64,000 nucleotides of DNA, taken from Vitis vinifera. Its lineage: Eukaryota; Streptophyta; Magnoliopsida; Vitales; Vitaceae. The stretch lies in contig NC_081822.1 in assembly GCF_030704535.1 (NCBI RefSeq), forward strand, positions 4,579,001-4,643,000, read 5' to 3'. This document shows, one piece after another, positions 11,271-59,750 of this stretch. Below the pieces are notes generated by a model that saw only the letters and a program-made list of their open reading frames with translations, was not told the origin of the DNA and did no database searches. Each line of letters starts with the position of its first letter. Position 1 is the first letter of the stretch. A program made the translations under genes and the position numbers.

Positions 11271-12055
11271 CAAGTTAAGGTAAAAATAACGATTAACTAA
11301 TTAATCAATATACACCAAGAATTGAAAGTCAAAGAATAAAAACAAACCATACATGAAAATAAAAAAATAAGTAGGTAAACAAGATAAGATTGGGAAAGTA
11401 CCTTAGCATGAACGACCAAGCATTTCATAGGAAATATGGTGAGTGCATAGTAACAAACACAAAATAATCTTATGTATCACAATAGTAAGACGTGAGCGAT
11501 TATCATCCAATAAATATAAAGCATTTAGAATCAAAAATAAAAATGGAGAATATCTCATATATTAGTCCCACCGATATCCAATTTACTTGGCATGAATTTA
11601 TTCTATAAACTTCATTTTCCTAATAAACATGAAGAAAGAATCAGGGAAATATGAGGAAATTTCATTATTTTTTTGAAATATATAATTTTTTTCATGTTAT
11701 TAAAAAATCAAGAGAATCAAGATATTATTGAAAATAAGAGAAAATAATATTTAGAATGCATGCCCAAAAAAAGTGGCAAATTTTATTGCCTAAAGATATC
11801 TAGGATAAAATTTAAAAGTGGTGACTATTTCAGTTGAAAATAGATTTGAAAATTTAATTTAAAAACTGTAAACTCTCACAAAACGGAGGAGTGTCACCGG
11901 AAGAGAAGAGTGGAAGCGCTGAAGGTGGCCAAGCAAGCCGGGCAGAAGTGGGCCCCAGGGTGCAAGGTATCGGTGATTGTAGCCTCAGGGAAAAGTGGGA
12001 CGACAATTTTAAAAAATAATTTCTAAATTACCGTAAAAAAATAATTTATAAGTGA

Positions 12056-12082
12056 AAAATCGTCTCTTTAAGAGACGATTTT
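12056..12082. repeat. Perfect 27-bp hairpin related to the 50.7-52.8 kb array
   Basis: Arms AAAATCGTCTCTT and AAGAGACGATTTT flank a single T. The core CGTCTCTT/AAGAGACG is the same as in the hairpin array at 50,715-52,805, although the outer bases differ (ATCG here, ACTCG there). Weaker versions follow at about 12,108-12,150 and 12,211-12,245. Confidence 0.85.
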
Positions 12083-12284
12083 AAAAAAATAAAAATATAA
12101 AATAAATCAAAATGAGAAATCATCTTTTAAAAAAATAATTTCAATATATAAATATATATATATATATATATGAAAAATTCTCACTTAAAAGAAAAGAAAA
12201 AAAGAATAAAGTGGGAAATCCTCTCTTCAAAATATGATTTCCATACTTTTAAAAGTGAGAACATCTTCATGTTTAAATATAATA

Positions 12285-13476: not shown

Positions 13477-14433
13477 ATGGCCTCTTTCGTTCCTACTCAA
13501 TGCCTTTTACAACTCCTCTTTGTGGCTTCTCTGCTTCCATTCATCTCAGCAGCCAGGAGACTTGCTCAAGACCAGCAACCTCTGCTTCTTCAATACCACA
13601 ATGGCCCTCTTCTTTCCGGAAAAATCTCCATTAATCTCATCTGGTACGGAAAGTTCAAGCCTTCCCAACGCGCCATTGTTTCTGATTTCATTACCTCCCT
13701 CTCTTCCTCCAAAACCACCCCCCACCAACCCTCTGTTGCGGCGTGGTGGAATACCATCGACAAATACTACCTCCTCATTAAGTCCAAGAAATCCACCTCC
13801 CTCGGTCTCTCCCTAGGCACCCAAATCCTCGACGAGAACTACTCTTTGGGTAAATCACTGACCAGTCGAAATCTCAAACAGTTGGCAGCAAAGGGGCAGC
13901 AGAGCAACGCCATTAACGTAGTCTTGACATCTTCTGATGTAGCCGTTGAAGGGTTCTGCTCCAGCAGGTGCGGAACACATGGGTCTTCTCCCAGCTCCAA
14001 GACTGCTAAGGTTAATGGCAAGATCTCCAAGTTCGCATACATCTGGGTGGGTAACTCCGAGACTCAGTGCACAGGTCAATGTGCATGGCCATTCCACCAG
14101 CCCATTTACGGACCCCAGAGTCCACCCCTGTCCGCACCCAACAACGATGTGGGTATGGAAGGTATAGTTATGAACCTGGCTAGCCTCTTGGCTGGAACTG
14201 TTACGAACCCCTTTGGAAATGGATACTACCAAGGTTCCGCAGAGGCTCCCCTGGAGGCTGCATCGGCCTGCCCTGGGATTTATGGGAAGGGCGCGTACCC
14301 TGGCTATGCCGGAAAGCTGTTGGAGGATCCCACCACAGGTGCTAGCTATAATGCCAATGGTGTGAATGGGAGGAAGTACCTGCTTCCTGCATTGCTTGAT
14401 CCTTCAACTTCCACCTGTTCTACTCTGGTCTGA
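13477..14433 (+). CDS. EXL1: EXORDIUM/PHI-1-like secreted protein
   Basis: Single-exon gene of 318 residues in the Phi_1 family (EXORDIUM, EXO-LIKE), extracellular proteins linked to brassinosteroid-promoted and carbon-status-dependent growth. Residues 1-25 form a signal peptide (hydrophobic [16 protein letters not shown], probable cut after ISA). Family landmarks in order: [20 protein letters not shown] near residue 40, [51 protein letters not shown], and GAYPGYAG with the [19 protein letters not shown] end. The length fits the family. TATA 94 bp upstream and AATAAA at 14,548 frame a compact gene. EXL2 follows on the same strand 2.9 kb downstream, a likely old tandem duplicate. Identity to a specific Arabidopsis member is not resolved. 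Confidence 0.95.
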
Positions 14434-19491: not shown

Positions 19492-20640
19492 ATGGATCCC
19501 CATCAACACCAACCCATTGGACAAGCAGACGAAACCTCACCCCCTCCCTCCAACACCGCTACCACTTCATGCCGCTGCTGCGGCGGCCCCACCACATGCC
19601 CACCTCCACCGGCATGGTCCGACATCTCTCCGCCACCCCCCTACCGCCCCATCCGCGCCCCCGCCATCAACCTTCCTCCTTCCAACTCTCAACAAGCTAT
19701 CATCCTAGCCCCCGTTCCTCAAGCCCAGAAGACCCCCGTTGTCTCTCCGCCCTATCTTTTCCAAATCCCCGTCAAGCGAATCCAGACCAGACGACATTCG
19801 CCATTTCCATGACTCCGATTCCGGGAAGAACTTCTTAGGTTTCGTCGTTTCCCTTAGCGAATCCATTCGCTCCCACAAAATTTCCGACCCTTGCCACCAA
19901 TCACCAATCCTCAATTCTATTCTCTCCATCCTTCAATCTCTAATCGACTGGGTCGACGAAATACCTCCCGTTCAACAATCTTCCCGTTACGGTAATCTCT
20001 CTTTTAGGGTTTGGCAAAGTCGGTTGTTCGATAATAGCGAGCAACTGATGCTCCAATTCCTCCCCGATGATCTCCGGTCGGCTACCGTCGAACTCGTCCC
20101 TTACTTTGCCGATAGTTTTGGGAATTCGAGTCGAATCGATTATGGAACCGGTCATGAGACCAATTTTGCTGCGTGGCTTTATTGTTTGGCTAGATTAGGG
20201 TTGCTCAAGGAAGAGGATTACCAGGCTCTTGTTTCTAGGGTTTTTGTGAAGTACCTTGAATTGATGAGGAAATTGCAATTCGTCTATTGCCTTGAACCTG
20301 CGGGATCCCATGGAGTTTGGGGTCTGGACGACTATCATTTTCTGCCATTTATATTTGGGTCGTCGCAGCTGATCGATCACAAGTATATGAAACCCAAGTC
20401 AATTCATAATCAGGATATTCTGGACAACTTCTCCAAGGAGTATATGTATATTTCTTGCATTGCATTTGTGAAGCAGGTGAAGAAAGGCCTATTTGCAGGG
20501 CATTCCCCATTGTTAGATGATATTAGTGGTGTAGCTAATTGGAACAAGGTGAATAGTGGGATGCTCAAAATGTATAAAGCTGAGGTGTTGGAGAAGGTTC
20601 CAATTATGCAGCATTTCCTATTTGGGTGGCTCATCAAATG
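19492..20640 (+). CDS. PTPA: PTPA: PP2A phosphatase activator, frame change in exon 1
   Basis: Phosphotyrosyl phosphatase activator, a cytosolic/nuclear protein with peptidyl-prolyl isomerase activity that remodels the PP2A catalytic subunit using ATP. The start MDPHQHQPIGQ opens a proline-rich N-terminus with a CRCCG motif (98 codons to 19,785). The conserved core then continues from 19,787 in the next frame (PDDIRHFHDSDSGKNFLGFV) through YGTGHETNFAAWL (20,141-20,180), GVWGLDDYHFLPFIFGSSQL, KEYMYISCIAFVKQVKKGLF and VPIMQHFLFGWLIKW. One extra base (or two missing) at about 19,786 breaks the frame; it may be a sequencing error or a real lesion. At 20,640/20,641 the Trp codon is split by a GT donor; reading through instead gives YDHC and a stop. 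Possible acceptors lie at 22,947 (adding ESHYSSSNHI) and 23,694. The family often ends soon after KWE, so the true end is undecided. Confidence 0.85.
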
Positions 20641-34664: not shown

Positions 34665-36733
34665 GCCCCAGGAGAGAGGGTCAAACAAGTTACTTATATT
34701 TATATATATATTAAAGACAGAAGTCAGAAGTCAAATAAATGCTGCAATATTAATATATGTACAGCTGTATCAGAGAGTAACTAAAGGTCAAACTTGGCTC
34801 TCTCCTTTATCTAGGTTAACCCACCTGTCCTCCATACTTCACGGCAGGTGCCTAATGCTTTTCATAGGAGATGTACAACAGATTCAATATTTACACAATT
34901 ATCAACTTTTAATTACCTACCCCTTTAATATATTACTCTTAAGCAATATAAACGATATACAAATACCTATTTTTGTAATGCAGTAGGATCTTGACAATCA
35001 ATTATTTGGTCCTGATCCTGGAACCATGTATCAACAGCCGGTCACCCTTTAAAAATCATGAATTAGACAACCCATGCTTTTTTCGGACAAAAAACAACCG
35101 ACAAGGGATTTCCACAACTTTTTCTAATGGATGAACATACCTTTTCTGTATCTCTTTATGTACATAAACCAATAATTTGGGCAGTCCAAAAGCTTTGCGG
35201 ATTCTATGTGGGGCTAAATGGTATCATTCATCTTCTGTGTTGGCCCGCAGTCGACATGGCACAAGAACTTCACAATTTGTACTGGTATGGAGTTTATTTT
35301 CTTATTAAGAATGTTTGTCCAAACCGATATGATATATGGTTTGTATTTGTGAAAGAAATATCTTCAAATTCTGAAAAGGCATAAACCTAACCCCGCCGCA
35401 AGCTAAAAGTTGACCAAAGAAAGTCGATAAGCTTTTAAAACTCGTTCCAAGTTGTCGGATGTCCACACCTATATATTATTATTTATAGGTGTGCGAATGG
35501 ATGAGAAATCTATTATATATGATGTTAATGGTTAAGTCGGACCCATACAAACAAAAGATGAAGTCGGTATATATAATGGAAACAAAGAGGTGGAAACAAA
35601 GAGGTGCTAATCGCTATGAATTGAAGACAGAATGCATCCACCCCATACAAAAATGTCGACCATAAGATGAAATAAAATATTTAGAGAAGATAAATGTGAG
35701 GGCGGTGACAAGATTGAGGAGCTTAAAACAATGATTAAAATATAGGGATATTTCAACGATGTGTCTGTGTCGATATGAGCTATTTACATGCTGTCCGGCG
35801 AGTTGAAGCTTCAACCATCCACATTACTGTTGAGGCAAGTTTTCCCCTTGTTAATAATCTTACACTATATATATATATATATTAAAAGTTTTCATATACA
35901 CTAAATATTTAAACAATTAATTAATTATATTTATTTTATAATTAAATACAAAATTTTCATTTAATTGAGTAATAAAAAGTTTTTAATATCATTAATATAT
36001 TAATTAAATATTAAAAAATTATACATTTATCATCATTTATTTTATATCATTTAATACAATTAAATTAAATATATTATAATTTTAATATTAAATATATTTT
36101 AAAATTAAATATATTATAATCAAATATCATAATATTATTATCGAATAATATTTGATGTAATTTAATAATTAATATACACTTTTATACATATGTATTAATT
36201 TATTCAATAAAACAAATTTAAAATATCTATTACATTTCTAATTTAATTTTTAAAAACTTTATTTTATATTTTTAAAAGTTTTGATCAATTTTAAGTCGAT
36301 CAATTTTTTGTATCAAAATATCCATCAATATATTTTCGATATATCCGTAAAATCGAATTATCGATATATTAGTGATTACCGATAATTTTATCATTGGCTT
36401 AAAAGAGAAGTGATGCTATGGGACCAAAAAAAAAAAATCTGATCCTGTGAGAGATTCCTTGGGGGGTCTGAATGTTTTTGCTGGCTTCCTTTGCCATTCT
36501 TTCACGTACCTTATGTTCGCATTCCTGGAAAGACAACTCCCATTTTCATTCTTTCCTTTCATTCAATCATTACGAAGACCACAAACTTCAGTATTGTACG
36601 GCTTTATCTGGGTCTAAATTTTCTGGTCATTTTCTTGATCCTTCCGTGAACCATTGGAACGCCATGGAGCTTAACTTCTTGTTTATATATATATATATAT
36701 ATATGAACATCAAATGCAGGTAAGTTAGGACAT
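34665..36733. other. UGT4 upstream region and rest of unit A before the retroelement
   Basis: It contains one copy of the promoter segment that is doubled in UGT5 (about 34,740-34,862). About 435 bp (34,998 to about 35,440) is absent from unit B. The uninterrupted site AGAGGTGCTAATCGCTATG at 35,600-35,620 is where the Mutator-like element sits in unit B. A very AT-rich tract at 35,860-36,400 is also missing or replaced in unit B. A conserved stretch at 36,440-36,700 recurs at 53,180-53,430. No gene assigned. Confidence 0.6.
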
Positions 36734-37505
36734 TGTAGGGACCCCTCCCTCCGAGACACGTGGCACGCATCTTACAGTGACACGTGGCACGCATTGTCAT
36801 CCAGGTCATTTTCATCCGGACCTTCTCATAAAGCACAATGGCACGCTTTTCCGGACTACCTCAAGGAAGATCAAACGACACTTATAAGCATATCATCCGG
36901 ACGATTTACACAATGCATCCGGATGATCAACATAGGCCGTCCGGATACAATGGTCCGGACCACTAACTAAAGTATAGCGAGTCTTACACGCTATCACGAC
37001 AACCAGCCATGGCCCACGTCCCATCACCTGCAGAGTGAAAGGACGGGTTGAGGTGACAACAAGTCACTTCCCACGATCATTCTACATGATCACTTCCCAC
37101 GATCATTCTACATGATCACTTCCCACGATCTCTAAGCAGCAGCATCACCTACCACGGTTTCTGACAGCCGCCAGTAGGGTGGCGATGACCATGCTGCCTC
37201 CGAATGTCATCATGACAAACATAAAATATCTCCTCGCCATTAATGAGAGGAACAATACTCCTAGCACTATATATGAACCTTCGCACGAAGAAGAAGGTAA
37301 TCTCCAGATACCGAGTAAAAGGCCAACTGATTTATATCTCCCTCTCTAGCCATGGCTAACAAAACCATTAGAGAGTGCGTCCGGACACTCTGTCCGGATG
37401 CCTTTTTGCAGGTATAACGACTGAATCAAGAACCTTTGTGTGTTGAGATCGCGTCTCCATCCATTTGGCAACTACGTGGAAGCCCAGGAGTGCGAGGTAT
37501 TAACA
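36734..37505 (+). repeat. 5' LTR of the Tat-like element
   Basis: 772 bp, longer than its partner because of extra copies of short internal repeats: a doubled CACGTGGCACGCAT segment, an additional TCCGGATG stretch and an additional CTTCCCACGATC unit. Eight or more TCCGGA/TCCGGAC motifs cluster in the first 250 bp and again near 37,380-37,400. Confidence 0.95.
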
Positions 37506-40500
37506 TTGGCGCCGTCTGTGGGAACATTTTTACTTTGATTCAGTCACCAAAAAAGATGGCTACACCTTCCCGAAGCCGATCATCTGGTAAAGGAGTGGAT
37601 GGATGATAATTTTGAATGACGTCAAACCATCGAAAGAAGACAGTTGGCAAGCGAACGACAACTAAAAGCTCTCCTCCAAGAGACAGAAAGATTGAGAGAA
37701 GAAAACACTGTATTACGTATCCAGGTTTCAACATCAGGGCCTCCTCGACGTCGGCATTCAAGGGGCCAAGTAGCAAACTCGAGGCCTCAGTAAGAGCCGG
37801 AATCAATATATCCTGGGACAACAGGGGCTATCCCAGGGGCATGCAACGTAAGGCCTCACGAGCCACGCACGCCTATGCCTCGAGCTCCCCGTGATGAAAG
37901 CTCAGACTCTACTCACTTTTCAGCAAAAAGACAACGTGATAAAAAATCACAGTTGTCAAATTCGATGCGCGCAAGACTAGGCCCGCAAGAGCCTAGAAGA
38001 TCAAGGCCACCAATGGCCACAACCTGGGCACCACGCCCTGACCCCATGGCCACCCCCATGGTGCAAAACGTTCACCCGCATCGTGACCCCGTAGTCACCC
38101 TCGTGATGCGGAACGTTCATTCGCACCCAGCGGAACGACCAGCTGGGAGAAACATCCCAAACGAGCCGATCATTGGCTCCATCAGCAAAAGGCTGGATGA
38201 CATGCTCTCCACGCCTTTTTGCTCTCATATCATTAATTACGAGCCCCCAAGGGGATTCCTCGTACCAAAGTTTTCCACATACGATGGAACCAACGATCCC
38301 TTCGATCACATCATGCATTATCGACAGCTTATGACGCTCGATATTGGCAACGATGCACTGCTATGCAAAGTATTTCCCGCCAGCTTACAAGGACAGGCCC
38401 TCTCATGGTTTCATCGCCTACCTCCCAACTCTGTTGGCGATTTCAGGGACCTGTCCGAAGCTTTCGTGGGACAATACTTGTGCTCCGCACGACACAAGCA
38501 AAATATCAGCACCCTGCAGAACATAAAAATGCAAGATAACGAATCCTTGAGGGAATTCGTGAAGCGATTTGGCCAGGTCGTGCTTCAAGTAGAGGCTTGT
38601 AGTATGGATGCTGTCCTACAGATCTTCAAGCGAAGCATCTGTCCAGGCACTCCATTTTTCGAATCACTGGCTAAAAAGCCTCCTACAACGATGGATGACT
38701 TATTCAGACGAGCCAACAAATATTCAATGCTCGAAGATGACGTACGTGCAGCCACCCAGCAAGTTTTGGTTGCCGGACGGCCATCTAGAAGTGATGCGGA
38801 GAGAAATACTAAGCCTTCGGATCGACCAAAGCCGTCTGACCGAAGGCAGGAAGGGCCAAGTCGCTCGGAAAGGCCGCCTCTCACACCTCTTTCCATATCA
38901 TATGAAAAACTTCTCCCCATGATCCAAGGCTTGTCTGACTTCAGGTGGCCAAGACCCCAAGGAACAGACCCCTCCACAAGGGATCATAGCAAGAGATGTG
39001 TCTTCCACAAAGATCATGGCCATACAACAGAGACATGCCGAGCTTTCCAGTTTCTGGTCGAGAGGCTTATAAAAGCAGGGCATTTGAAGCAATACCTCCG
39101 ATCAGATAATGGAGAAAGGGACGCATCCCAACATCACAACCCCGGGGCCCCTAGGGCCCCAACTGCCCCCAAGGCCATTATAAACTATATTAACGGAAGT
39201 CCATCTGATGAGGAGTACGACTCTAGGCGAAAGAGACAAAAATTGTTGCGGGCCGCATCAATACGCGAACGCATCAATTCCATCCGACCTGGGCTAACTG
39301 GAGGGGGCCCTCGCCCCATAGATGGGACAATCATTTTCCCACCAGTAGATCCCACCAGGACACTGCAACCACATCGCGACGCCCTCATCCTGTCCCTGGA
39401 AATTGGGGGCTTTGATGTGCGGCGTATCTTAGTTAACCCAGGCAGCTCGGCCGATCTTATACAAGCATCAGTCGCTAGCCACATGGGACACAGTCTCACA
39501 GTCCTTGAAAACCCTGGACAAATCTTGTCCGGATTCAACGGATCGTCAACTATATCTTTGGGAGACATTGTACTGCCGGTCCAAGCTGGCCCAGTCACTC
39601 TCAACGTGCAATTCTCGGTAGTACAAGAGTTATCACCCTTCAATATCATCTTAGGGCGCACATGGCTACACTACATGAAAGCCATCCCCTCTACATATCA
39701 TCAAATGGTGAGTTTCATCACCAGCGAGGGGCAGATTGACCTGTATGGCAGCCAGTTAGCCGCTCGCCAATGCTATCAAATAGCACGAGAGGCAGGGGCC
39801 AACCAGGAGGATGCATCTCCCCCTGAACCCAACATTGCACATGACCAATAGCAATTATTGGGTCGGGCGGACAAAGATCCCCCGGCAGCAGATCCTTTAC
39901 AAACAATCCAAATTTCGAAGGAAAGCACTCACCTTACAAACATCAGCTTCCTCATGACAGCCGAAAAAACTCAGTGTATGCAAAACATTCTCAGACAGAA
40001 TCATGACATCTTCGCATGGGCACATTCTGATATGAAGGGAATTCATCCCTCTATTGCATCTCACAGGCTTAACGTCTTTTCAACTGCCAGACCCGTCCGG
40101 CAGAAAATTAGGCGTTTTCACCCGGATAGACAAAAAGTCATCCGAAATGAGATGGACAAATTGCTCGAAGTCGGATTCATCAGAGAAGTTTCTTATCCGG
40201 AGTGGTTGGCAAATGTAGTGGTGGTACCCAAAAAAGAAGGAAAGTGGCGAGTTTGTGTAGACTATACCAATCTCAATAATGCATGTCCAAAAGACAGTTT
40301 TCCCTTGCCACGAATAGATCAGATTGTGGATTCCACGTCCAGGCAAGGGATGCTCTCTTTCTTGGATGACTTCTCCGGATATCATCAAATCCCCATGTCC
40401 CCGGACGATGAAGAAAAGACAGCATTCATAACGCCACACGACCTCTATTGCTACAAAGTCATGTCATTCGGACTCAAAAATGTTGGTGCCACTTATCAAA

Positions 40501-43262
40501 GATTGATGACTAAAATCTTCGAACCTCTAATAGGCCACACGGTAGAGGTATATATTGATGATATCGTGGTTAAAAGCAAAACCCGAGAGCAGCATGTCCT
40601 TCACTTACAAGAAGTTTTTCACCTCTTACGAAAGTATGGCATGAAGCTAAATCCTTCTAAATGCGCATTTGGCGTAAGTGCTTGCAAATTTCTGGGATTT
40701 ATGGTCAGCCAAAGGGGCATAGAAGTCAGCCCGGATCAAGTCAAAGTAGTCATGGAAACACCCCCTCCCAGGAACAAGAAGGAGCTACAACGACTCATAG
40801 GCAAGCTCGTCGCACTAGGGCGTTTTATAGCCCGCTTCACTAATGAATTGCGACCCTTCTTCTTGGCAATACGAAAAGCTGGAGCACATGGATGGACGGA
40901 CAGTTGCTAGAACGCTTTCGAAAAGATTAAGCATTGTCTTACGCAACCGCCCATCTTGAGCAGCCCCATTCCAAAAGAGAAATTGTATATGTATCTGGCG
41001 GTATCAGAATAGGCAATCAGCGTCGTTCTATTCCGCTGCCCCTCGCCCAAGGAGTGAAAACCTATCTACTACGTCAACAGGGCATTGGCTGACGTAGAAA
41101 CCAGATATTCAAAAATGGAGCTAACAGCCTTAGCCCTTCGAAACGCTGCTCAGAAGCTCCGCCTTTATTTCCAAGCTCATCCAGTGATCGTACTAACTGA
41201 CCAGCCCCTTCGCAATATTCTGCACAAGCCAGATTTAACCGGGAGAATGCTACAATGGGCCATTGAATTAAGCGAATTTGGAATCGAATTCCAACCTAGG
41301 TTGTCCATGAAAGGCCAGGTAATGGCTGACTTCGTGCTAGAATATTCCCGAAGACCCAGCCAACACCACGAATCAAGTAAACAAGAATGGTGGACTCTGC
41401 GAGTTGACGGAGCCTCACACTCATTCGGCTCTGGAATTGGGCTCCTACTACAATCCCCAACTGGGGAACATTTGGAGCAAGCCATCCGGCTGGGATTCTC
41501 TGCCTCTAACAATGAAGCAGAATATGAGGCTATCTTGTCCGGATTGGACCTCGCCCTTGCTCTATCCGTCTCCAAACTCCGAGTCTACAGCGACTCACAA
41601 CTCGTGGTAAAGCATGTCCAGGAGGAATATGAGGCTAAGGACACACGCATGGCGCGATACTTAGCTAAAGTAAGAGAGACTTTGCAGCAATTCACCGAAT
41701 GGACAATCGAAAAAATCAAGCGAGCTAACAATAGGCGCGCTGACGCCTTGGCTGGCGTAGCTGCCTCCCTCCCTATCAAAGAATCCATTCTATTGCCCAT
41801 ACATGTGCAACTCAACCCCTCTGTCGCAGAAAGTTCCACCTGCAATACCATTGAGGCACCCCAAGCGGACGGCCAAGAATGGATGAATGGCATCACATAA
41901 TATATCCGGACTGGAACTTTACCAGGAGATCTCAAACAGGCACACAAAGTCCGGGTGCAAGCTGCCCGTTTCACCCTGATTGGGGGGCACCTATACAAGC
42001 GATCCTTCACAGGACCTTACCTTCGATGCCTAGGGCATTCAGAGGCCCAGTATGTGTTAGCTGAGTTACACGAAGGAATATGCGGGAATCATTCAGGAGG
42101 ACGATCTCTGGCACATCGAGCCCATTCACAGGGATATTATTGGCCAACAATGAAGAAGGATGCGGCAACATACGTCAAAAATTGTGACAAATGTCAAAAG
42201 CATGCTCTCATTCCACATATGTCATCAGCAACATTGAAATCAATATCAAGCCCATGGCCCTTCGCACAATGGGGCATGGACATAGTAGGACCTCTCCCAG
42301 TTGCGCCTGCCCAAAAGAAATTTTTGCTCGTTGCCACAGATTATTTCAGTAAGTGGGAGGAAGCTGAAGCATATGCTAGCATCAAAGACAAGGATGTCAC
42401 CAAGTTCGTATGGAAAAATATTATCTGTCGTTTTGGAATTCCCCAAGCCATCATAGCTGACAATGGTCCACAATTTGATAGCATTGCATTCAGGAACTTC
42501 TGTTCGGAGCTAAACATCCAGAATTCATACTCCACACCGCGATATCCTCAAAGTAATAGGCAAGCAGAAGCCACAAACAAGACCCTAATCACTGCCTTAA
42601 AGAATAGGCTTGAACAAGCCAAAGGAAAATGGGTCGAGGAGCTACCCGGCGTCCTATGAGCCTACCGAACTATACCCAGACGGCCAACAGGAAATACTCA
42701 TTTCGCTCTCGCATATGGAATGGATGCAGTCATTCCTACTGAAATAGGTCTTCCTACTATCCGGATTGATGCAGCAAAACAGAGTGATGCAAACATGGAA
42801 TTAGGAAGAAATTTGGATTGGACGGATGAAGTGAGGGAAAGCGCGGCCATCCGGATGGTAGATTATCAACAAAGGGCATCAGCACATTACAATCGCAAAG
42901 TGAGGCCAAGAAGCTTAAAAAATGGTACGCTAGTCCTTAGAAAAGTTTTTGAAAACACTGCTGAAGTCGGTGCAGAGAAATTCCAAGCTAACTGGGAAGG
43001 ACCCTATATAGTGTCTAAGGCAAGTGAAAGTGGAGCCTATTATTTACAAAAGTTAGACGGGACTCCATTACTTAGACCATGGAATGTGTCCAATTTAAAA
43101 CGGTACTATCAATGAAAAAGAGAGACAAAAACAAATAGAAGAAAAAGACATATTTTATTGATATGTATCAATGAATGTACAAAGAGGTCTTCGGACCACG
43201 AAAATACAAAAAAAAATTACAACAAAAAGTTGCAAAAAGACAAAAGCTATCAGGGAGCAGCC

Positions 43263-45691
43263 TTAAAGTTTCTTCTCTTCACCCGGAGGAATTGAAGGGA
43301 CATCCCCCTTTATGCCATTCTTCTTCATACAGCAGCGATAACCGAAGATGAAGGTGTCATCCACTTGTTTTTGGTAGTCCGCTTCAAGTTCCTCCCTCTC
43401 TGCAGCAAACTCCCGTTCTAGCTCTTCTTTTTGCGCTGTTAAGCGTAGCTGCAAATCTTCTTTTTGCTTCTTTTCAATAGAAGCCTCTGTCCGGAGTTGC
43501 CTCACTTCCCCCCCCCCCCCCCCCCCCATCCGGGCTATCTCATCCTCTGCCTCATGCAGACGGGCAATCGATGATTCCTCCCGGTCCTTAGCCTCAGCCA
43601 ATTTCGCCCGAAGGGCTTCATTGTCCTCTCGAACGGTGGATAAGCTGGCCTCAGCCTCCGCCAGTCTCAGGCGCAACTGATCTTCAGCATCTTTGCGCCG
43701 AGTGGCGAAGGTCTTCATATAATCAGTGGTCCGCAGCAGGTCAGTGAAAAGATCGTATTGATTGGCCATACCACGGAGACCACTCACCAGCTGCAGGCAA
43801 ACAGACAAACAAGAAAAACAAAGTTATAAATCACACCACAAACACATATCAGAATGAGAAAGATTCAAGGAACACAGAAAAGTATACCGACTCCACCATC
43901 TCGAACATCTTGGCTGAAGGCATAATACTGGTCAAGCTGGGTGGAATCTGTTTCAGCTTATCTTCCAACTCCGCATAGCTAAAAGGGCTAGCGGAGGTGC
44001 AAGACGCATCATTAACAGGATCCCCGCCTGATGAGGCAACAGAAGGAGACTCTGGTTCCGGATTCGGTGCCTTAACATTTACGACCGAATGGGTCTCCCC
44101 GGGTGCAACCTCAGCCGGGACCATTACAAGGACGACTGGAGGCTCAGTTGTCATCTCCACTTCGCCCCCCTCCGGATGAGCGTCGTGAGCGGATGAGCAA
44201 CTAACTTCGATCTCTTGTTAACGATCTTGAAGCCACCCGAGGAGTCCGGACCTCTGATTGCGCGCCGAGCGCGGCCTCTTCGAAGGTGGCCCCTTCACCA
44301 GAACAAGAGTCAGACGGTCCGGATCGTCCGAGGGCTGACTCTGGCTTTCGATCCCCGCTTCCTCCATCGGGTCCGCACAAACGGCTTCAACTGCATCGAC
44401 ATCCGGATTAGGGGAGTCCGGATGGTTGATGGATGCAGCTTCCTCAGCCAGATTAGCCAGACGGGCAACCGCTGCCAATGAGGTACTTGAGTGGTTCAGC
44501 CCCACGACGTGTCCGGAACCGCTTGAGATAGAATGAGGAGCAGGGTTCACTAGCTCCTCTATTATTACCTCCGCCTCGTGGATAATTGGCGGAGGAGCAA
44601 ATTCTTTGGGAGGAGTGGGCTCCTTCACTCCCTTCCCATTCTTCACCAGCTTCTTCTTTTTCGCTGGAGCTTTATTTGGCGGAGAGTCTGCGTCGCATTT
44701 CTGTCTGGGAGCCTTCCGAAGGGTCCCTTCGTTTTTCTTCTTCTCCTGATTGTCCAAGAGCGCTCGGCGTTTTTCAGCGTCAGCCTCTTTTAACGCCTGG
44801 TAAATCGGGAGATCTTTCACAATGTAATGCTCCCCAGGCACTACCTCCTTTGGCATCTTCTTGGGGAGAATGTTGATGACATACTCTTGGGGCTCTTGGA
44901 CGACCGCCATCAGGTTCCGTGCAGTCAGCAGCATCTTGCACTGCCTCTCCTTGGCGTCTATTTCAAAACACTTGCTGAGACAGGCAAAAGACGCATTTCC
45001 ACCCAATCCACGAGGTAGCCCCTTTTTTCCGGACCTACATTAACAGCAGCAAAGGTTGACAATACCATCCGGAGATATCAACAAGAAAACAACAAGGTAA
45101 AAATCCGGACAAAAGTCGCAAAGCAAACTTACCCGGAATCGCTAAGGAATAGTTGGGAGAGAAGGGCCTCACCGGATGCCTCGACCCCGCCCACGCACCC
45201 CGGACCATCACGTGTCTCTTCGCCCCTCCATTCGTCGAGTCTGGCAGTTCCGTCACCAATTGAAGGGAGGGCAGGTGCGCGGACAGGCTGAAGATGTCAG
45301 TTTTCGCCTTCTTCAGCGAATACACGAAAAACACCTCCAGCAGCGTGAGGTCAAGGTTGTACAGCATGTTTATGATGTTGCATCCCATCAGCACCCGGAC
45401 GATATTGGGGTGAATGAAGACTGGTGGAATCTTGGTGAAATGGAGGAATTCCTTGAACAACGCCGGCAGAGGCAACCGGAGCCCCGCATAGAATTGTTCC
45501 TTCGAGAAGATGACGGTATCTTGTTCAGCTTTCTCAGTAGATACGACATCTTTCCAATTCAAAAATTCCACAATCACGCCATTTGCAATGCAGAATCGAT
45601 CCCGGAACTCCTTTACGCTCAGTTTGTCTGTAGGTTTCTCATGAGCGTCGCTGGAGTGGGCAGATGAAGTAGCTTTCTGCTTTGAAGACAT
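43263..45691 (-). other. Antisense coding region of the Tat-like element
   Basis: Between integrase and the 3' LTR the reverse strand holds several long open segments. One is a heptad-rich coiled coil (43,263-43,808: RLAEAEASLSTVREDNEALR, then REELEADYQKQVDD). One is rich in charged and low-complexity stretches with a Lys-rich putative nuclear signal (KKKKLVKNGKG), and one begins MSSKQKATSSAHSSDAHEKP. The segments may be exons of one transcript. Extra reverse-strand frames at this position are known from Tat-lineage elements such as Grande; their role is not established. Treated as part of the fossil. Confidence 0.6.
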
Positions 45692-46401
45692 TTTCTAGCC
45701 CGAGGTTGAACTGAAACCTACATGCAAGAAATGCAATAGTCAAACACAGCCAACCAACCCCACAAACCCTAAACGATAACAAACACTCGGAAAACCTCGC
45801 ACCAACAGTATACCTATTCCAAAATCTTTGACTCTACCCCAACAAGAAACCCCCGACCTACAAAAACCACAGGGGGGCAACTGAAACCCTTAAAACACCC
45901 AGTCACAAACAACACTCGCCCAAACAAGCCAACAACGCCAAAGCGTACAAAAGGAAAGAACAAAGCATAAAGAATACGTACCGAATGTCAGAGAGAAGCA
46001 AAGGTTGCAGATCGCAAGGCAAGCACCGTCAAAGCGCAACAAATCACCGTAAAAAATTCTAGGGTTTTCACTCAAAAGAAGCAACAATACGCACAAGGTT
46101 GACGAAGAAAGCTATCTCAGAAAAACGCAGTAGAAAAAAGCAACAGTGAGCACAGTATGCTATTTATAGGGGGACATCCCCTCGGAAAGCCAAACGTCCA
46201 ACAAACGTCATCATTGAAACGACATACTGCCTGGGAATACCCAGAGTCGGCGGCTCATCATAAATGCCTTTTTGGCTCTCGCACCCCCACTCGCCACGTG
46301 GCCCAACCAGACAAAAAGTCGATTTCGGTTTCAAAAAACCAATTATTTTTAACCCGCCCATTTTTGCTCGGGCAAAATAGGCAAGTTAAAAAGGGGGGCA
46401 T

Positions 46402-47102
46402 TGTAGGGACCCCTCCCTCCGAGACACGTGGCACGCATTGTCATCCGGGTCATCTTCATCCGGACCTTCTCATAAAGCACACATGGCACGCTTTTCCGAA
46501 CTACCTCAAGGAAGATCAAACTGCACTTATAAGCATATCATCCGGACGATTTACACAATGCATCTGAATACAATGGTCCGGACCACTAACTAAAGTATAG
46601 CGAGTCTTACACGCTATCACGACAACCAGCCATGGCCCACGTCTCAGCACCTGCAGAGTGAAAGGACGGGTTGAGGTGACAACAAGTCACTTCCCACGAT
46701 CATTCTACATGATCACTTCCCACGATCTCTAAGCAGCAGCATCACCTACCACGGTTTCTGACAGCCGCCAGTAGGGTGGCGATGACCATGCTGCCTCCGA
46801 ATGTCATCATGACAAACATAAAATATCTCCTCGCCATTAATGAGAGGAACAGTACTCCTAGCACTATATATGAACCTTTGCACGAAGAAGAAGGTAATCT
46901 CCAGATACCGAGTAAAATGCCAACTGATTTATATCTCCCTCTCTAGCCATGGCTAACAAAACCATCGGAGGGTGCGTCCGGACACTCTGTCCGGATGCCT
47001 TTTTGCAGGTATAACGACTGAATCAAGAACCTTTGTGTGTTGAGATCGCGTCTCCATCCATTTGGCAACTACGTGGAAGCCCAGGAGTGCGAGGTATTAA
47101 CA
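46402..47102 (+). repeat. 3' LTR of the Tat-like element
   Basis: 701 bp, starting TGTAGGGACCCC and ending GTATTAACA, directly followed by the GACAT target duplication. It is collinear with the 5' LTR except for short-repeat copy number. Confidence 0.95.
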
Positions 47103-48241: not shown

Positions 48242-49779
48242 CTAGAGAAGAGCTTGGGTGATCATTTTGTCCAAGTTCGAGAAAGACGACCCATTGGGAC
48301 CTCTAGTGGCCTCTTCTGCTAGAGCCTTCCACTCCAAGGCCTTCTTCTTCAACTCTTTGCCTTTCTCTCCCTCCATCAACTCCTTCACAAGCCTTTCAAT
48401 TTCATCTCTCTTAACGTCGCTGTCTATCTCCATGCCTATGCCCCACTCAGTGCAACAGTAGCGGCAGTTGGTTTGCTGCTCTGCAAAAAAGGGCCAACAA
48501 ATCATAGGCACTCCAGCGCTCACACTTTCAATTGTGGAATTCCACCCGTTGTGAGTTAAGAAGCCGCCAACAGCCGGGTGACTGAGAACTTGCTCTTGAG
48601 GACACCAACCTGCTAACAGACCCCTCTCTTTCGTCTCTGCCACGAATTCTGGCGGAAGAATGGCCGCGTCACCGGACACAAGATCTGGCCTGATTATCCA
48701 TAAGAACGTCTGATTGCTATTCACCAGTCCCCAAGCAAACTCATTGAGTTGCTGCGATGTCATGACCGTGACGCTCCCGAAATTCACGTAAACAACAGAG
48801 TTGGGCTCTTTGGAGTCCAGCCACTCCAGACATTCCGGCTCTTCTTTCCACAGATTCGATTCCATCAACTTCAAATCGTTATCTTGGATCTGACTCATGA
48901 GTTTGTGCAGGGGACCGATGGTGTAGATTGGGGGAAACATCTGAGAAAGTGCATCCAAAACTTCATGCTCTAGAGCATCAAATGTATTGAAAATGAGGGC
49001 AGATGCCTTGCGAGCTCTTTCAGCCTCCCGCAATGGAAATTCCAGCATAATGTCATTTGGGTCCGTCGTTCGAATGAAGCTTGGGATATCCCTCAAACGG
49101 ATACCTTTCATACCCGGTATCCAATCAATAACGGTATCCAGATACCCATTTGTTAGGTAACTCTCATCTGCATTTCATAGAAAGGAGGGGAAAAAATATG
49201 AGAATCCGTATTGAGCTTAGCTTTGAAGTAATTAAATGCAAAGTTGGTCAGTATTTGATTCATTTGAATGATACCTTTGAGTGGAGCCAAACCCTTATCG
49301 ATAAGATTGCGATATTGCACGTAGCCCATGAAGCCGCAAGCACTAGTTGTCCAGAAAAGAACTTCAGGAACGCCAAGCTCTTGAGCAGCATCAAGAGTGA
49401 AGCTCATGGCGCCATCAGAAACTATGCAAGTGACTGGAGGGCCATCGTGGTTGAGGTTGGAAAGAAGGTCTCTAAAGGGAGGCAGGCAGTGTTTTGTGGT
49501 GGAGACACAGAGAGCGGGAGTGTCTTGGGTGGCATCAACATTGGAGGGAGGGAGACCATCGGGAATGGTCTTGAATTGGAAGGAGGGGATGCCTTTGAGG
49601 GAGTCTGGACCCCGAGATTTGAGCAGGCGGTTATGGTTGTACTCTGTGTTGACAAAGGTAATGTGGAACCCTCTGAAATGAAGGAACTTTGCTAGTTTTA
49701 GCATAGGGTTTATGTGGCCCTGTGCTGGGTACGGTATGCAAACTGCATGTGGCTTCTCAGCTGAGGCTAAGGAACCCAT
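48242..49779 (-). CDS. UGT5: UGT85A-like glucosyltransferase, two exons
   Basis: Intact, near-identical copy of UGT4. Exon 1 is 49,779-49,275 and exon 2 is 49,167-48,242, with a 107-bp GT-AG intron; 476 residues from [13 protein letters not shown]. The catalytic His, partner Asp and PSPG box (residues 356-399) are all as in UGT4. Differences are few (for example [12 protein letters not shown] for [18 protein letters not shown] for SITVMT, GPNGSS for GPKGSS), none at catalytic positions, so the enzymes probably share an acceptor. The promoter differs more than the protein: a segment of about 135-170 bp is tandemly doubled upstream, and a Mutator-like element lies 0.7 kb upstream of the start. 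Confidence 0.94.
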
Positions 49780-50182: not shown

Positions 50183-50478
50183 TCATAGGAGATGTACAAC
50201 AAATTCAATATTTACACAATTATCAACTTTTTACTTTTAAGCAATCCAAGATTCCCAACGATATATGAATACCTATTTTTGTAATGCAGTAGGATCTTGA
50301 CAATCAATTACTCTAAAAACTCGTTTCAAGTTGTCGGATGTCCACACCTATATATTATTATTTATAGGTGTGCGAGTGGATGAGAAATCTATTATACATG
50401 ATGTTAATGGTTAAGTCGGACCCATTCAAACAAAAGATGAAATCGGTATATATAATGGAAACAAAGAGGTGCTAATCG

Positions 50479-51066
50479 GGACTTTTCTCAATAGTATAGT
50501 AATTTTAAAAAGTTATGCTTAAATTATTATAGTAGAAGAAGTTATTATAAATATATGGTAGTTTTTGCCACATAGGAGAGAGGAGAGAGGGTGAGAGAGA
50601 GGAGATAGGAGAGAGGAGAGAGGGTGAACGGATAAATTTTTTAATTCCATGAAAAAAAAAATTATATTTTTTTAAAAAAATATATATTCTTTTTAAAAAA
50701 TTCCTATTTATTCAAGGGAACTCGTCTCTTCAAGAGACGAGTTCCATGAAAAAAGACAAGGGAAAGACGAGTTACCAGGGAAAAAAATATATATATTTTT
50801 TTTAAATATATTTTTTATTTAAAAAAAATCCTAAATTAAATTTAAAAAAATTTCCTAAATGGAACTCGTCTCTTTGGGAAATTTTTTTTTTTTTTAAATA
50901 TATATATTTTTAAAAAAAAAATATTTTTTTTTACATGGGAACTCGTCTCTTGAAGAGACGAGTTCCCTTTAGGAATTTTGAGGATTTGTTTTTTTTTTTT
51001 AATATATATATTTAAAAAATATTTTTTGTTTTTTTACATGGGAAGAGACGAGTTCCCTTTGAAATT

Positions 51067-51110
<44 letters not shown>

Positions 51111-51939
51111 GATTTTTTTAAATAAAAAATATATTTTTACAAAAAAATATTTTTTTTCCCTAAAGGAACTCGTCTCTTTTTAATTTAGGATTTTTTTTAA
51201 ATAAAAAATATATTTAAAAAATATATATATATTTTCCCATGGGAACTCGTCTCTTCAAGAGACGACTTCCCTTTACGAAATTTTTTTTTTTTAAAAAAAA
51301 TATTTTTTTTACATGGGAACTCGTCTCTTGAGGAGACGAGTTCCCTTTAGGAATTTTGAGGAATTATTATTATTATTTTTTTTTAATATATATATATATA
51401 TATTTTTACATGGGAACTCGTCTCTTGAAGAGACGAGTTCCTTTAGGATTTATTTATTTATTTTTTTTTAATTTGGGATTTTTTTAAAATAAAAAATATA
51501 TTTAAAAAAAAATATTTTTTTCAAGAGACGAGTTCCCTTTAGGAATTTTTTTTTTTAAATATATATATTTTTTTAAAAAAAAAATTTTACATGGGAACTC
51601 GTCTCTTGAAGAGACGAGTTCCCTTGAGGAATTGTTGTTGTTTTTTTTTTTTTTTTGGGATTTTTTTAAATAAAAAAAATATTTTTTTTCCCAAAGGGAA
51701 CTCGTCTCTTGAGTTCCTTTAGGAATTTTTTTTTTTTTTAATTTGGGATTTTTTTTAAATAAAAACTATATTTAAAAAAAAAATATTTTTTTTCCCATGG
51801 GAACTCGTCTCTTCAGACGAGTTCCTTTAGGAAATTTTTTTTTTTTTTAGATATATATATTTAAAAAAAAAATATTTTTTTTTACATGGGAACTCGTCTC
51901 TTCAAGAGACGAGTTCCCTTTAGGAATTTTGAGGAATTG

Positions 51940-51971
<32 letters not shown>

Positions 51972-53013
51972 TATTTAAAAAAAAAAAAATTTACATGGGA
52001 ACTCGTCTCTTGAAGAGACGAGTTCCCTTTGGAATTGTTTTTTTTTTTTTTTATTCAGGATTTTTTTAAATAAAAAATATATTTAAAAAAAAAATATTTT
52101 TTTTCCTAAAGGGAATTTTTTTTTCTTTTTTTTAATTTGGGATTTTTTTTCCCATGGAACTCGTCTCTTCAGACGAGTTCCTTTAGGGAATTTTTTTTTT
52201 TTTTAAATATATATATATTTTTTTTAAATATATATATATTTTTTAAAAAAAATATTTTTTTTACATGGAAACTCGTCTTTTGAAGAGACGAGTTCCCTTT
52301 AGGAATTTTTTTTTTTTTTTTAAATTGGGATTGTTTTTAAATAAAAAATATATTTTTTTTTTTTAAAAAAAAAATTTTCCCATGGGAACTCATCTCTTGA
52401 AGAGACGAGTTCCCTTTAGGAAATTATTTATTTATTTATTTAATTTGGGATTTTTTTTAAATAAAATATATATTTAAAAAAAAAATATTTTTTTTCCCAT
52501 GGGAACTCGTCTATTCAAGAGACGAGTTTCCTTTAGTTCCAAATTGTTTTTTTTTTTTAATTTGTGAATTTTTTTTTTAAAATATATATTTTTTGTAATG
52601 GGAACTCGTCTCTTGAAGAGACAAGTTTCCTTGAAGAATTGTCTTTTTTTTTTTTTTTTTTAATTTGAGAATTTTTTTAAAAATATATATATATTTTTTT
52701 TCATGGAACTCGTCTCTTGAAGAGACGAGTTCCCTAATGGGGAATTTTCTTTAAAAAATATATATTTTTTGTTTCATGGAACTCGTCTCTTGAAGAGACG
52801 AGTTCCCTTTTTAAAAAAAATTTATCCGTTCACCCTCTCTCCTCTCTCCTATCTCCTCTCTCCTTTCTCTCACCCTCTCTCCTCTCTCCTCTCTCCTATC
52901 TCCTTTCTCCTCTCTCCTATGTGGCAAAAACTACCATATATTTGTAATAACTTCTTCTACTACAATAATTTAAGCATAACTTTTTTAAATTACTGTACTA
53001 TTGAGAAAAGTCC
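50479..53013. mobile_element. Non-autonomous Mutator-like element with hairpin array
   Basis: Long terminal inverted repeats of about 160-190 bp pair 50,479-50,642 with about 52,815-53,013: GGACTTTTCTCAATAGTA, then TATATGGTAGTTTTTGCCAC, then a GGAGAGAGG-type purine tract and GTGAACGGATAAATTTTTT. Both sides carry GTGCTAATCG (50,469-50,478 and 53,014-53,023). Unit A has the single, uninterrupted site at 35,604-35,613. A 9-10-bp duplication with long TIRs points to the Mutator superfamily. No transposase is present. The interior is the hairpin array described separately. Confidence 0.92.
50715..52805. repeat. Array of about 22 hairpins (CTCGTCTCTT/AAGAGACGAG)
   Basis: The unit is a near-perfect hairpin, arms GGGAACTCGTCTCTT and AAGAGACGAGTTCCC with a loop of zero to one base (G or C). 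It is usually preceded by TTTTACATG or TTTCCCATG, and followed by TTTAGGAATTTT and a spacer of T-runs, TATATATA and A-runs. Clear full units lie near 50,718, 50,938, 51,238, 51,314, 51,410, 51,590, 51,887, 51,994, 52,264, 52,380, 52,497, 52,596, 52,702 and 52,775. Shortened or half units lie near 50,769, 50,861, 51,041, 51,162, 51,522, 51,698, 51,798 and 52,152. Spacing is mostly 70-125 bp. The GC of the element is almost confined to the arms. Confidence 0.93.
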
Positions 53014-53315
53014 GTGCTAATCGCTATGAATTGAAGACAAAATGCATCCACCCCATTCAGAAATGTTGACCATAAGATGAAATAAAATATTTAGAGAAGA
53101 TAGATTAAGGGCGGTGACAAGATTGAGGGGCTTAAAAGACATGTCACTGAGTGATGCTAAGGGCGACCGAAAAAAAGAAATCTTATCCCTGTGAGAGATT
53201 CCTTGGGCGGTCTGAATGTTTTTGCTGGCTTCCTTTGCCATTCTTTCACGTACCTTATGTTCGCATTCCTGGAAAGACAACTCCCATCTTCATTCTTTCT
53301 TTTCATGCAATCATT

Positions 53316-56769: not shown

Positions 56770-59750
56770 AACCGTATAAAAAGTATATGATAAACCTACA
56801 CTTTTATCTTTTATTTTATTTATATGTAATAAAATTATACTTTAATTTTATGGTAACTTTGATTTTATATTTTATTTATATATGATAAAATTATACTTTG
56901 ATTTTATATTTTATTTATTTTATTGAAGCGCATAAACATACGTGGATATCAATTAGAAAATATGTTTTTCTTTCTAGTAAAAAATTATTTAAAAAATATC
57001 ATAATTAGATATTATGAAAAATAAGTGCAATCCTCATAACTGAAAGTTATGAGATAAATAACAAAATTACAAGTATACAGTATGCATATGACTTTTAATT
57101 ACTTTTTAATTATATTGTATAATTGGAAGTCAACAATATTGTGTAGGTAGAAGCTATAGAATGAAATAGTTCATAACCTAAAACTATGTATAAATTTACA
57201 CAATGAATTCATAACATGAAGTTATGTACAAATTTGCTCAATAAATAGTTCATAACCTGAAATTATATATAAATTTATATATTTTTTTTATTCTGACAAA
57301 ATAATTTGAAGTTATAAAAAATATTAATTTTTAATTTCTATTTTGTATTCATACACTTTTATCATATTTGTAATTAACAACAAAACATAGCAAAATCTTA
57401 TATCATTATATTTTTAGACATTATTTATTTGATAAAATATTGTTAAATAATTTTATTAATTTGTTTATATTTTATTTCAATAAATTGAAATATTTTCTCA
57501 TTAAATTATTGCATATATAGTTTTCAAAAAATGTCAAGCTTGACAAAGCTTAGGTTTGTTGTCCTTGATATTTTAAGGCAAAAACTACTTATCATAAGTT
57601 CTAGATACTAAAATTCACCTAAATGTAATGAATCTTGGAAATATTACTAAAAAGGAAAATGACACATCCTTGCATAATTGTACCAAAGCTTTAATATTCC
57701 TTGTCATCACATTAACGAAGGATTAAAAGATGAATACCTTATGGTAAAAATTCCTTTCATCATTTGGAATAATCTAAGTGAACGATATGACCACCAAAAA
57801 ATTACAATCCTTCCAAAAGCATGTTATGATGGGATGTACTTGAGATTATAAGATTTCATGTTTTTTAGTGGCTACAACTTAGTTTTATTCAAAATTAGCT
57901 CACAATTAAAATTATGTGGAGAGAAAGTCATTGAAGAAGATATGCTTAAAAAGACATTTACGACTTTTCATGTTGTGAATGTACTCCTATAGTAGCAATA
58001 ATGAGAGCGTCGTTTCATTAAATATTCAAAATTGATTTAATGTTTTCTTATGGTTGAACAAAATAATGAGCTTTTACTGAAAAACCATCAATCTCGTCCT
58101 ATTGGATCTGTGTCATTACCTAAAGCTAATGTCCCATATGTCCAAACTTCTGAACATGGACAAGAACGTGGATATGGATAAGGTTGAGGTAGAGGATGTG
58201 GTCGCGATTGAGGTCCTAGTAAATACAATCCATCACATTGAGTTATAGGTTTTTTTTTTTTTTTAGAATCAATCATTTTAATTGATGTATTAGTGGACCT
58301 TTAGGTTATAGTTTGGACAAATGTGTCATTGGCTTCAAGCAATGACACGGTCCCAACATGATGAAATTAATGGTTTTTCGGTAAAAGTTCCCTATTTTGT
58401 TCAATCATAAGAAGACATGAAATTAATTCTAAATATTTGGTGAAACAACGCTCTTAATATTGTTGCTGCATGAGCACATTTGAGGCATGAAAAGTCGTAA
58501 ATGTCTTTTCAAGTATATCTTTTTTAGTGAGTTTTTCTTCACATAATTTTAATTGTGAGCTAATTTTGAATAAAGTCAAGTTGTAATCATTAACAAACTT
58601 GAAATCTTATAATTTCAAGTGCATTCGATCATAGCATACTTTTTAAAGGATTACAGTCTTTTGGTGATCATATTGTTCCTCCAAATTATTCCAAATGATG
58701 AAAGGATCCTTGATCACAAGGTATTCACCTTTTAATCCTTTATCAATGGGATGACAAAGAAATATTAAAGTTTTTACGCAATCCTACAAGGATGCGTCAT
58801 TTCCTTTTTTTTAATAGTGTTTCTAAGATTCATTACATCTAGATGAATTTTAGCATTCATAACCTTTTAATCCTTTATCAATGGGATGGTGAAGGAATAT
58901 TAAAGTTTTGACATGATCGTGTAAGAATGCGTCATTTCCTTTTTTAATAGTATTTCCAAGATTCATTACATCTTGATGAATTTTAGTATTCATAACCCAA
59001 GATAAATAGTTTTTGCCAGAAATATTGAGGGTAACAAATTCAAGCTTTGCCAATTTTGACATTTTCTAAAAACTATATATGCAATAATTTAATTAGAAAA
59101 TATTTCAATTTATCAAAATAAAATGTAAAAAAATTAATAAAATTATTTAACAATATTTCATTAAGTAAATAGTGTCTAAAAATATAATGATCTAAAATCC
59201 TGCTATATTTTGTTGTCAATTATAAATATGGTCAAAATACGTGAATACGAAATAGAATTTAAAAACTAATTTTTTTTTATAACTGCAAGCTATGTTTATT
59301 TTGTTAGAATAAAAAAATGTACAATTTATAAATAGCTTCAAATTATGAACTATTCATTATGCAAATTTGCACATACCTTAAGGTTATAATCTATTCATTC
59401 TATAGCTTTTAACCATATAATGTTGTTTTATATAACTTTCAATTATAAAGTATAATTAAAAAGAAATTAGGAATCATATGTATAACTTCTTACTATATAT
59501 TTGTAATGATGTAATTTACCCCATAACTTCTACTTATGAGGATTATATATATTTTTTATATATAACTTCAAGTTATGATCTTTTTTCATAATTTTTTACT
59601 AAAAAAAAAACATATTTTCAAAATAATATCTGCATATGTTTATGTATTTATATACGATAAGCAAAATAGAAAATCAAAGTATAATTTTATCACATATAAA
59701 TAAAATAGAAAATAAAAGTATAGGTTCATCACATACCTTTCATGTGAGAA
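56770..59750. mobile_element. Inverted pair of copia-type gag fossils, 1.4-kb arms
   Basis: The left arm (about 56,770-58,180, plus strand) and right arm (about 58,310-59,750, minus strand) are diverged reverse complements. Matching landmarks include the gag start (plus strand near 57,531; minus strand ending near 59,062, reading MSKLAKLEFVTLNISGKNYL), the ACGACTTTTCATG block, the GAACAAAAT...AAAACCAT block near the centre, and the AT-rich leader with CTTCAAGTTATGA-type motifs. The gag start and a basic RG-rich stretch before the zinc knuckle are typical of copia elements. Both arms are heavily decayed with many breaks; the element is old. Confidence 0.7.

What the first reader, a model, noticed from the sequence alone, without database searches (positions are those of the whole stretch)
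50715..52805. Array of about 22 short hairpins forming the interior of a Mutator-like element
Nearly all non-A/T bases in this 2.1-kb interior lie in repeated palindromes with arms GGGAACTCGTCTCTT / AAGAGACGAGTTCCC. The arms stay conserved while the A/T spacers drift in length and sequence, and many changes keep both arms intact or shorten both arms together. That pattern suggests maintenance by a process acting on the hairpin (replication slippage, hairpin-primed repair, or selection on the folded form). Transcribed, each unit would give a short stem, and the array plus its 160-bp TIRs would give a large double-stranded RNA able to feed small-RNA silencing near UGT5. I do not know a description of this array type as a functional unit.
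Basis: partly seen in the sequence, partly recalled or inferred. Interest (0 to 1): 0.82.

Follow-up and report, generated by a model that had tools for sequence, protein, structure and literature searches.

The report
Plant jumping gene with hairpin minisatellite
A 2.5-kb plant mobile element just upstream of a sugar-transferase gene is filled with a tandem array of roughly 100-bp repeats, most built around a small hairpin; it looks like an unusual but recognisable Mutator-like element, and a near-identical gene segment without it lies in the same window.

Summary
The array is real. It is the interior of a 2,535-bp element (50479-53013) with long inverted repeats (137 of 144 gapped-alignment columns identical), a perfect 10-bp target duplication, and an empty site in a paralogous UGT segment (35604-35613). 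I tile the interior into 23 units: 14 complete hairpins, 3 shortened, 5 single-arm, 1 without. 309 of 457 G/C bases, not nearly all, lie in hairpins. All 9 arm substitutions are one-sided, so frequent arm-to-arm correction is not supported. Two shortened units share one 3-nt central deletion, most simply a duplicated mutant. Arms change less than nearby spacer motifs (9/364 against 26/260 sites; at G/C sites alone only P 0.08). A covariance model finds a second, eroded three-hairpin locus at 12.05-12.25 kb (best E about 1e-7); its best hairpin differs from the array core at two positions, each changed on both arms. So the motif recurs in another context. Best reading: a non-autonomous Mutator-like element, resembling foldback types, whose interior became a palindrome-centred minisatellite. 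An array of dyad protein-binding sites (compare VANDAL/VANC) is the live bold alternative; a small-RNA role is untested. No plant genome could be searched.

The parts
50469..50478 (.). left target site duplication GTGCTAATCG
   Evidence: single copy at the empty site
50479..50642 (+). left terminal inverted repeat (164 bp), inner part a purine-rich 7-bp (AGGAGAG) subrepeat stretch
   Evidence: 137 of 144 gapped-alignment columns identical to the right TIR in the outer part; shared inner end GGTGAACGGATAAATTTTTT
50711..52829 (+). interior array, 23 tiled units of 44-124 bp: palindrome plus A/T-rich spacer (the last tile runs 15 bp into the right TIR)
   Evidence: tile borders set by hand
50716..50746 (+). 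complete hairpin (centre C)
50784..50840 (-). spacer stretch inverted relative to 51179-51235 (57 bp, 98%)
   Evidence: I16
50862..50874 (+). left arm only; the other left-arm-only unit is at 51166-51178
   Evidence: folds to 0 kcal/mol
50937..50967 (+). complete hairpin (centre G); the other 12 start at 51241, 51315, 51412, 51593, 51888, 51997, 52267, 52384, 52501, 52600, 52704, 52777
   Evidence: DNA fold -16.2 kcal/mol, 0 of 200 shuffles as good
51043..51055 (+). right arm only; also 51523-51535 and, with 3 mismatches, 50762-50774
51698..51716 (+). shortened hairpin (8 nt lost)
51800..51825 (+). shortened hairpin (3-nt central deletion); the same deletion at 52157-52180
52093..52147 (+). 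unit without hairpin (TTCCTAAAGGGAA only)
52815..53013 (-). right terminal inverted repeat (199 bp), longer by extra subrepeats
53014..53023 (.). right target site duplication GTGCTAATCG
35604..35613 (.). empty (pre-insertion) site in the paralogous UGT segment
12046..12254 (+). second, eroded three-hairpin locus (12056-12082, 12116-12142, 12215-12241); all three have A instead of C at arm position 4, on both arms
   Evidence: (E 1e-7, 0.26, 0.03 in that order)
48242..49779 (-). UDP-glycosyltransferase gene; 699 bases lie between its presumed start codon and the element
   Evidence: (domain found in the 48242-49108 ORF only)

Best explanation
A non-autonomous Mutator-like DNA transposon that resembles foldback types. 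Its interior carries no gene; it is a minisatellite of roughly 70-120-bp monomers, most of them a 15-bp-arm palindrome plus an A/T spacer. The array grew by tandem and multi-unit duplication inside the element (slippage at palindromes and A/T runs, unequal exchange); the same process removes arms. The element inserted about 0.7 kb upstream of one UGT copy, most likely after that gene segment had been duplicated. Shown: TIRs, TSD, empty site, unit structure, one-sided arm changes, a shared deletion, a related eroded locus. Inferred: superfamily, mobilisation in trans, and the slippage/exchange mechanism.
For: 10-bp TSD and long TIRs; single-copy empty site in a paralogue whose adjoining flanks are 151/156 and 117/125 identical; no ORF above 83 aa overlapping the element; tandem structure; for 20 of 23 tiles the best-matching tile is not a neighbour, and mean similarity is highest at an offset of 6 tiles (0.484) against 0.390 at offset 1, as multi-unit duplication would give; two units share one 3-nt deletion; 9 of 9 arm changes one-sided; the 4 units I assigned by eye a CCTAAA-like left flank all lack a complete hairpin (9 of 23 tiles lack one; P 0.014, noticed after the fact), as expected if longer palindromes are unstable.
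Against: Arms change about four times less than adjacent spacer motifs (9/364 against 26/260 sites; A/T sites 1/196 against 18/195, P 3e-5; G/C sites 8/168 against 8/65, P 0.08), which plain duplication of whole monomers does not predict unless indels inflate the spacer count. The related locus at 12 kb suggests the palindrome outlived one element context. No transposase was found in the 14 of 26 long ORFs scanned with Pfam, and no second full copy was available.
Confidence: 0.66

Rival explanations
1. The palindromes are dyad binding sites for a protein of the autonomous partner (a transposase or a VANC-like anti-silencing factor), multiplied because more sites help mobilisation or escape from silencing.
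For: Arms conserved more than spacers; motif recurs in a second locus with different surroundings; [quoted passage not shown] repeated transposase sites in foldback TIRs are discussed in PMC4079207 (passages).
Against: No protein is known; the VANC motifs are 8-9 bases and the word 'palindrom' does not occur in that paper's main text; half and shortened sites are common here (8 of 23 tiles); the G/C-site comparison alone is not significant (P 0.08; core units 0.17).
Confidence: 0.2
2. Hairpin-level correction (template switching between arms, or hairpin-primed repair) keeps the arms complementary.
For: At the eroded 12-kb locus 7 of 11 changed positions are changed on both arms, 6 to the same letter; an inverted spacer exists in the array.
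Against: 0 of 9 arm changes in the main array are two-sided; covariation score not above shuffles (444 of 500 at least as high); the 12-kb result falls to P 0.07 after removing the shared position and letting only G/C sites change.
Confidence: 0.08
3. The array is maintained as a small-RNA source that silences or tunes the neighbouring UGT gene.
For: Long TIRs could form dsRNA on read-through transcription (inference); an inverted duplication of Mutator sequence silences MuDR in maize (Mu killer, PMC3440606, start of abstract).
Against: No RNA data; no Rfam match in the window at the gathering threshold; 15-bp stems are short for Dicer (own knowledge); no sign of selection on the folded form within the array.
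Confidence: 0.06

Closest known systems
Foldback-type Mutator-like elements (Tm1 of Meloidogyne, MuTAnT of Medicago, FARE of Arabidopsis)
   Same: Composite long TIRs; in Tm1 short tandem repeats in the TIRs, TIR lengths that differ between ends, and 9-bp target duplications (PMC3169594, passages); in MuTAnT TIRs built of modules that fold back, with FARE1 named there as carrying long palindromic repeats at both ends (PMC4486113, passages)
   Different: Here the stretch between the TIRs is the tandem array and most monomers are centred on a short palindrome; MuTAnT targets TA repeats, this insertion did not. Tm1 includes a 'histone-hairpin motif' group, which I did not compare
Tetris foldback element of Drosophila virilis
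   Same: Tandem repeats inside a non-autonomous foldback element, proposed seed of satellite DNA (PMC4079207, passages)
   Different: About 220-bp repeats lying in the TIRs; the word 'palindrom' does not occur in the main text
VANDAL elements with VANC-target motif arrays (Arabidopsis)
   Same: Mutator-related (recalled); short motif tandemly multiplied in non-coding DNA whose arrays diverge rapidly (PMC5735166, PMC10398659, passages)
   Different: VANDALs have degenerate TIRs and encode VANC; here TIRs are long, no gene is present and the motif is a 31-bp palindrome

Membership tests
Mutator-like element (MULE) | target duplication of about 8-11 bp (range recalled) | tested here: met
   10-bp perfect TSD, present once at the empty site
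Mutator-like element (MULE) | long terminal inverted repeats (common, recalled; not universal) | tested here: met
   164/199 bp; 137 of 144 gapped-alignment columns identical in the outer part
Mutator-like element (MULE) | MURA-type transposase or homology to a transposase-bearing copy | not testable with these tools
   no ORF above 83 aa overlaps the element; no transposase among 14 of 26 long ORFs scanned; no plant genome held
Foldback element | TIRs containing short tandem subrepeats, differing in length between the ends | tested here: met
   7-bp purine/pyrimidine subrepeats in both TIRs, 164 against 199 bp
Foldback element | TIRs make up most of the element (recalled) | tested here: not met
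   TIRs are 363 of 2,535 bp; so it resembles foldback types but is not filed as one
VANDAL/VANC target array | motif bound by a VANC protein encoded by the family | not testable with these tools
   no autonomous copy available
VANDAL/VANC target array | degenerate TIRs (PMC10398659, passage) | tested here: not met
   TIRs long and 95% identical over 144 columns
Small-RNA hairpin locus | stem conserved by compensatory change | tested here: not met
   0 of 15 pairs with a two-sided change across 14 hairpins; low power, since few sites change
Small-RNA hairpin locus | 21-24-nt reads from the stem | not testable with these tools
   no RNA data

The most novel reading that the evidence does not exclude
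A plant Mutator-like family has turned its interior into a dense array of 31-bp dyad sites read by its own protein (transposase or anti-silencer), with the palindrome conserved across element contexts while everything around it turns over; the 12-kb locus would be a relic of a sister family with a shifted, symmetrically changed site.
Probability: 0.15. Interest if true: 0.7.

Novelty: new variant of a known kind. Interest (0 to 1): 0.38.

Why it matters
It shows a palindrome-centred minisatellite inside a mobile element, with a paralogous empty site in the same contig, so the effect of the insertion (upstream of a UGT gene) and the growth and decay of the array can be studied against a natural control. 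If the palindrome proves to be a protein site, it would extend the motif-array logic known from Arabidopsis VANDALs to another plant element.

Tried and rejected
Own-genome search: no genome is held for this window. Exact scans for CTCGTCTCTTNAAGAGACGAG in prokaryote genome contigs and in viral contigs, and for TCGTCTCTTNAAGAGACGA in viral contigs: 0 matches each; these collections are not plant genomes, so this says nothing about plants. A literature search for the two arm sequences gave 93 papers, 20 listed; by title none is about transposons or hairpin arrays, one is about CAG repeats in vitro. Searches for such arrays in Mutator-like or foldback elements (all 2, 13 and 13 papers listed; 15 of 121 listed) showed, by title and abstract start, no palindrome array filling the interior of such an element; only these searches of open-licence papers back that statement. 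The FARE paper is not held. A TIR/TSD scan (TIR of 10 with up to 1 mismatch, exact TSD of 8-10) around the 12-kb locus found 0 candidates; the same scan recovers the 50-kb element. The unit alignment is unreliable in A/T tracts (arms 29/585 against 254/1389 changed in other columns), so I rely on the hand-anchored counts, whose two spacer motifs and places I chose myself. Ungapped or other aligners give lower TIR identity (88% over 137 nt; 91.9% over 149). The within-array compensation test has little power (0.08 both-arm positions expected by chance).

Full report
Setting. The window looks like plant nuclear DNA (inference). Of 26 ORFs of 150 aa or more, I scanned 14 with Pfam: a UDP-glycosyltransferase domain in the ORF at 48242-49108; phosphate-induced protein 1 (EXORDIUM-type, name recalled) at 13477, 17297 and 60835; PTPA at 19739; retrotransposon gag, reverse transcriptase, RNase H and integrase at 37.9-42.7 kb; five ORFs without a match, among them 49156-49779, the likely first exon of the UGT. 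No transposase of a DNA element was among them. The name UGT5 and the species could not be checked; no genome is held.

The element. GGACTTTTCTC...GAGAAAAGTCC bounds 50479-53013 (2,535 bp) with GTGCTAATCG on both sides. The TIRs align with 137 of 144 columns identical plus a 5-bp gap and share an inner end, giving 164 bp on the left and 199 bp on the right, the difference lying in 7-bp purine/pyrimidine subrepeats. The longest ORF overlapping the element is 83 aa. Rfam at the gathering threshold: no match in the window.

Empty site. The UGT segment at 32.8-35.6 kb is a near copy of that at 48.0-50.5 kb, in three pieces (97.7% over 2,062 columns, 90.0% over 260, 96.8% over 156). Where the second has the element, the first has one GTGCTAATCG, with adjoining flanks 151/156 and 117/125 identical. 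The insertion is thus directly visible, 699 bases from the presumed start codon of the 48-kb UGT. It most likely followed the gene duplication; precise loss from the first copy is less likely but not excluded.

The array. I tiled 50711-52829 by hand into 23 units (one search has 22, two of them merged): 14 with a complete pair of 13-bp or longer arms, 3 shortened, 5 with one arm, 1 with none. 309 of 457 G/C bases in 50715-52808 lie in these arms. Two complete hairpins fold as DNA at -16.2 and -17.2 kcal/mol, a shortened one at -12.9 (0 of 200 shuffles as good in each); the one single-arm unit tested does not fold. One 57-bp spacer stretch is inverted relative to another (98%).

Do the arms behave as a maintained hairpin? 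In the 14 complete hairpins there are 9 substitutions in 364 arm sites; none has a partner change. The pair count gives 0 of 15 pairs with a two-sided change, and a covariation score reached by 444 of 500 shuffles. Because changes are few, chance would give only 0.08 shared positions, so the test excludes frequent correction, not rare correction. Two units carry the same 3-nt central deletion and are identical over 24 bases, so a defective hairpin was probably duplicated like any other.

Are arms more conserved than spacers? Yes in raw counts: 9/364 against 26/260 in two hand-anchored spacer motifs (16 and 11 places). A/T sites differ strongly (1/196 against 18/195, P 3e-5; core units P 2e-4), though indels inflate the spacer count; G/C sites differ weakly (8/168 against 8/65, P 0.08; core units P 0.17). 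This goes somewhat against a purely passive array and is why I keep the binding-site reading alive.

Recurrence. A covariance model of the 14 hairpins, searched over the whole window without filters, finds outside the element 12046-12088 at E about 1e-7 and two weak matches beside it (E 0.03 and 0.26); the best other place outside both loci has E 0.51 (E-values rough). The best-kept palindrome there has arms AAAATCGTCTCTT against GAACTCGTCTCTT: two positions (1 and 4) differ, each on both arms; the other two share the change at position 4 and are more decayed. Over the three, 7 of 11 changed positions are changed on both arms, 6 to the same letter: P 0.00004 with all positions free, 0.014 if only G/C positions change; without the shared position 4, 4 of 8, P 0.0019 and 0.073. 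The main array's consensus was the reference. This suggests long-term palindrome conservation, from one locus. No TIR/TSD was found around it.

Mechanism. I favour a Mutator-like element, resembling foldback types, whose interior grew by slippage and unequal exchange at palindromes and A/T runs. For 20 of 23 tiles the best match is not a neighbour, and mean similarity peaks at an offset of 6 tiles, as expected from multi-unit duplications. The 4 tiles with a CCTAAA-like left flank (by eye) all lack a complete hairpin (P 0.014, post hoc), which fits instability of longer palindromes.

Known context. Passages seen in PMC4486113, PMC3169594 and PMC4079207 describe Mutator/foldback elements with composite TIRs and tandem repeats; passages in PMC5735166 and PMC10398659 describe tandem motif arrays in VANDAL elements as targets of VANC proteins. 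The present element differs in carrying the array between its TIRs and in the palindromic monomer core. It fails two features tested (TIR-dominated foldback, recalled; degenerate VANDAL TIRs), so it is filed only as Mutator-like by structure.

Verdict. A real, somewhat unusual plant element, ordinary in kind, with one open question (why the palindrome outlasts its surroundings) that a search of plant genomes could answer.

Noticed in passing
12046-12254: Eroded three-hairpin locus related to the array (best arms AAAATCGTCTCTT), with both-arm changes relative to the main array.
   Followed up: partly
35578-35605: A 14-bp tandem duplication (GGAAACAAAGAGGT twice) overlapping the left edge of the empty site, present only in the copy without the element.
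   Followed up: no
56856-59719: Large imperfect inverted repeat (arms about 1.3-1.4 kb in three pieces, 77-82% identical, about 160 bp between them): a possible second foldback structure.
   Followed up: no
36779-47102: LTR retrotransposon with gag, reverse transcriptase, RNase H and integrase ORFs; putative LTRs 36779-37505 and 46423-47102 are 91.5% identical, lying between the two near-identical UGT copies.
   Followed up: partly
35729-36408: 680 bp in the element-free paralogous segment where the other copy has 12 bp (53138-53149): a separate insertion or deletion.
   Followed up: no
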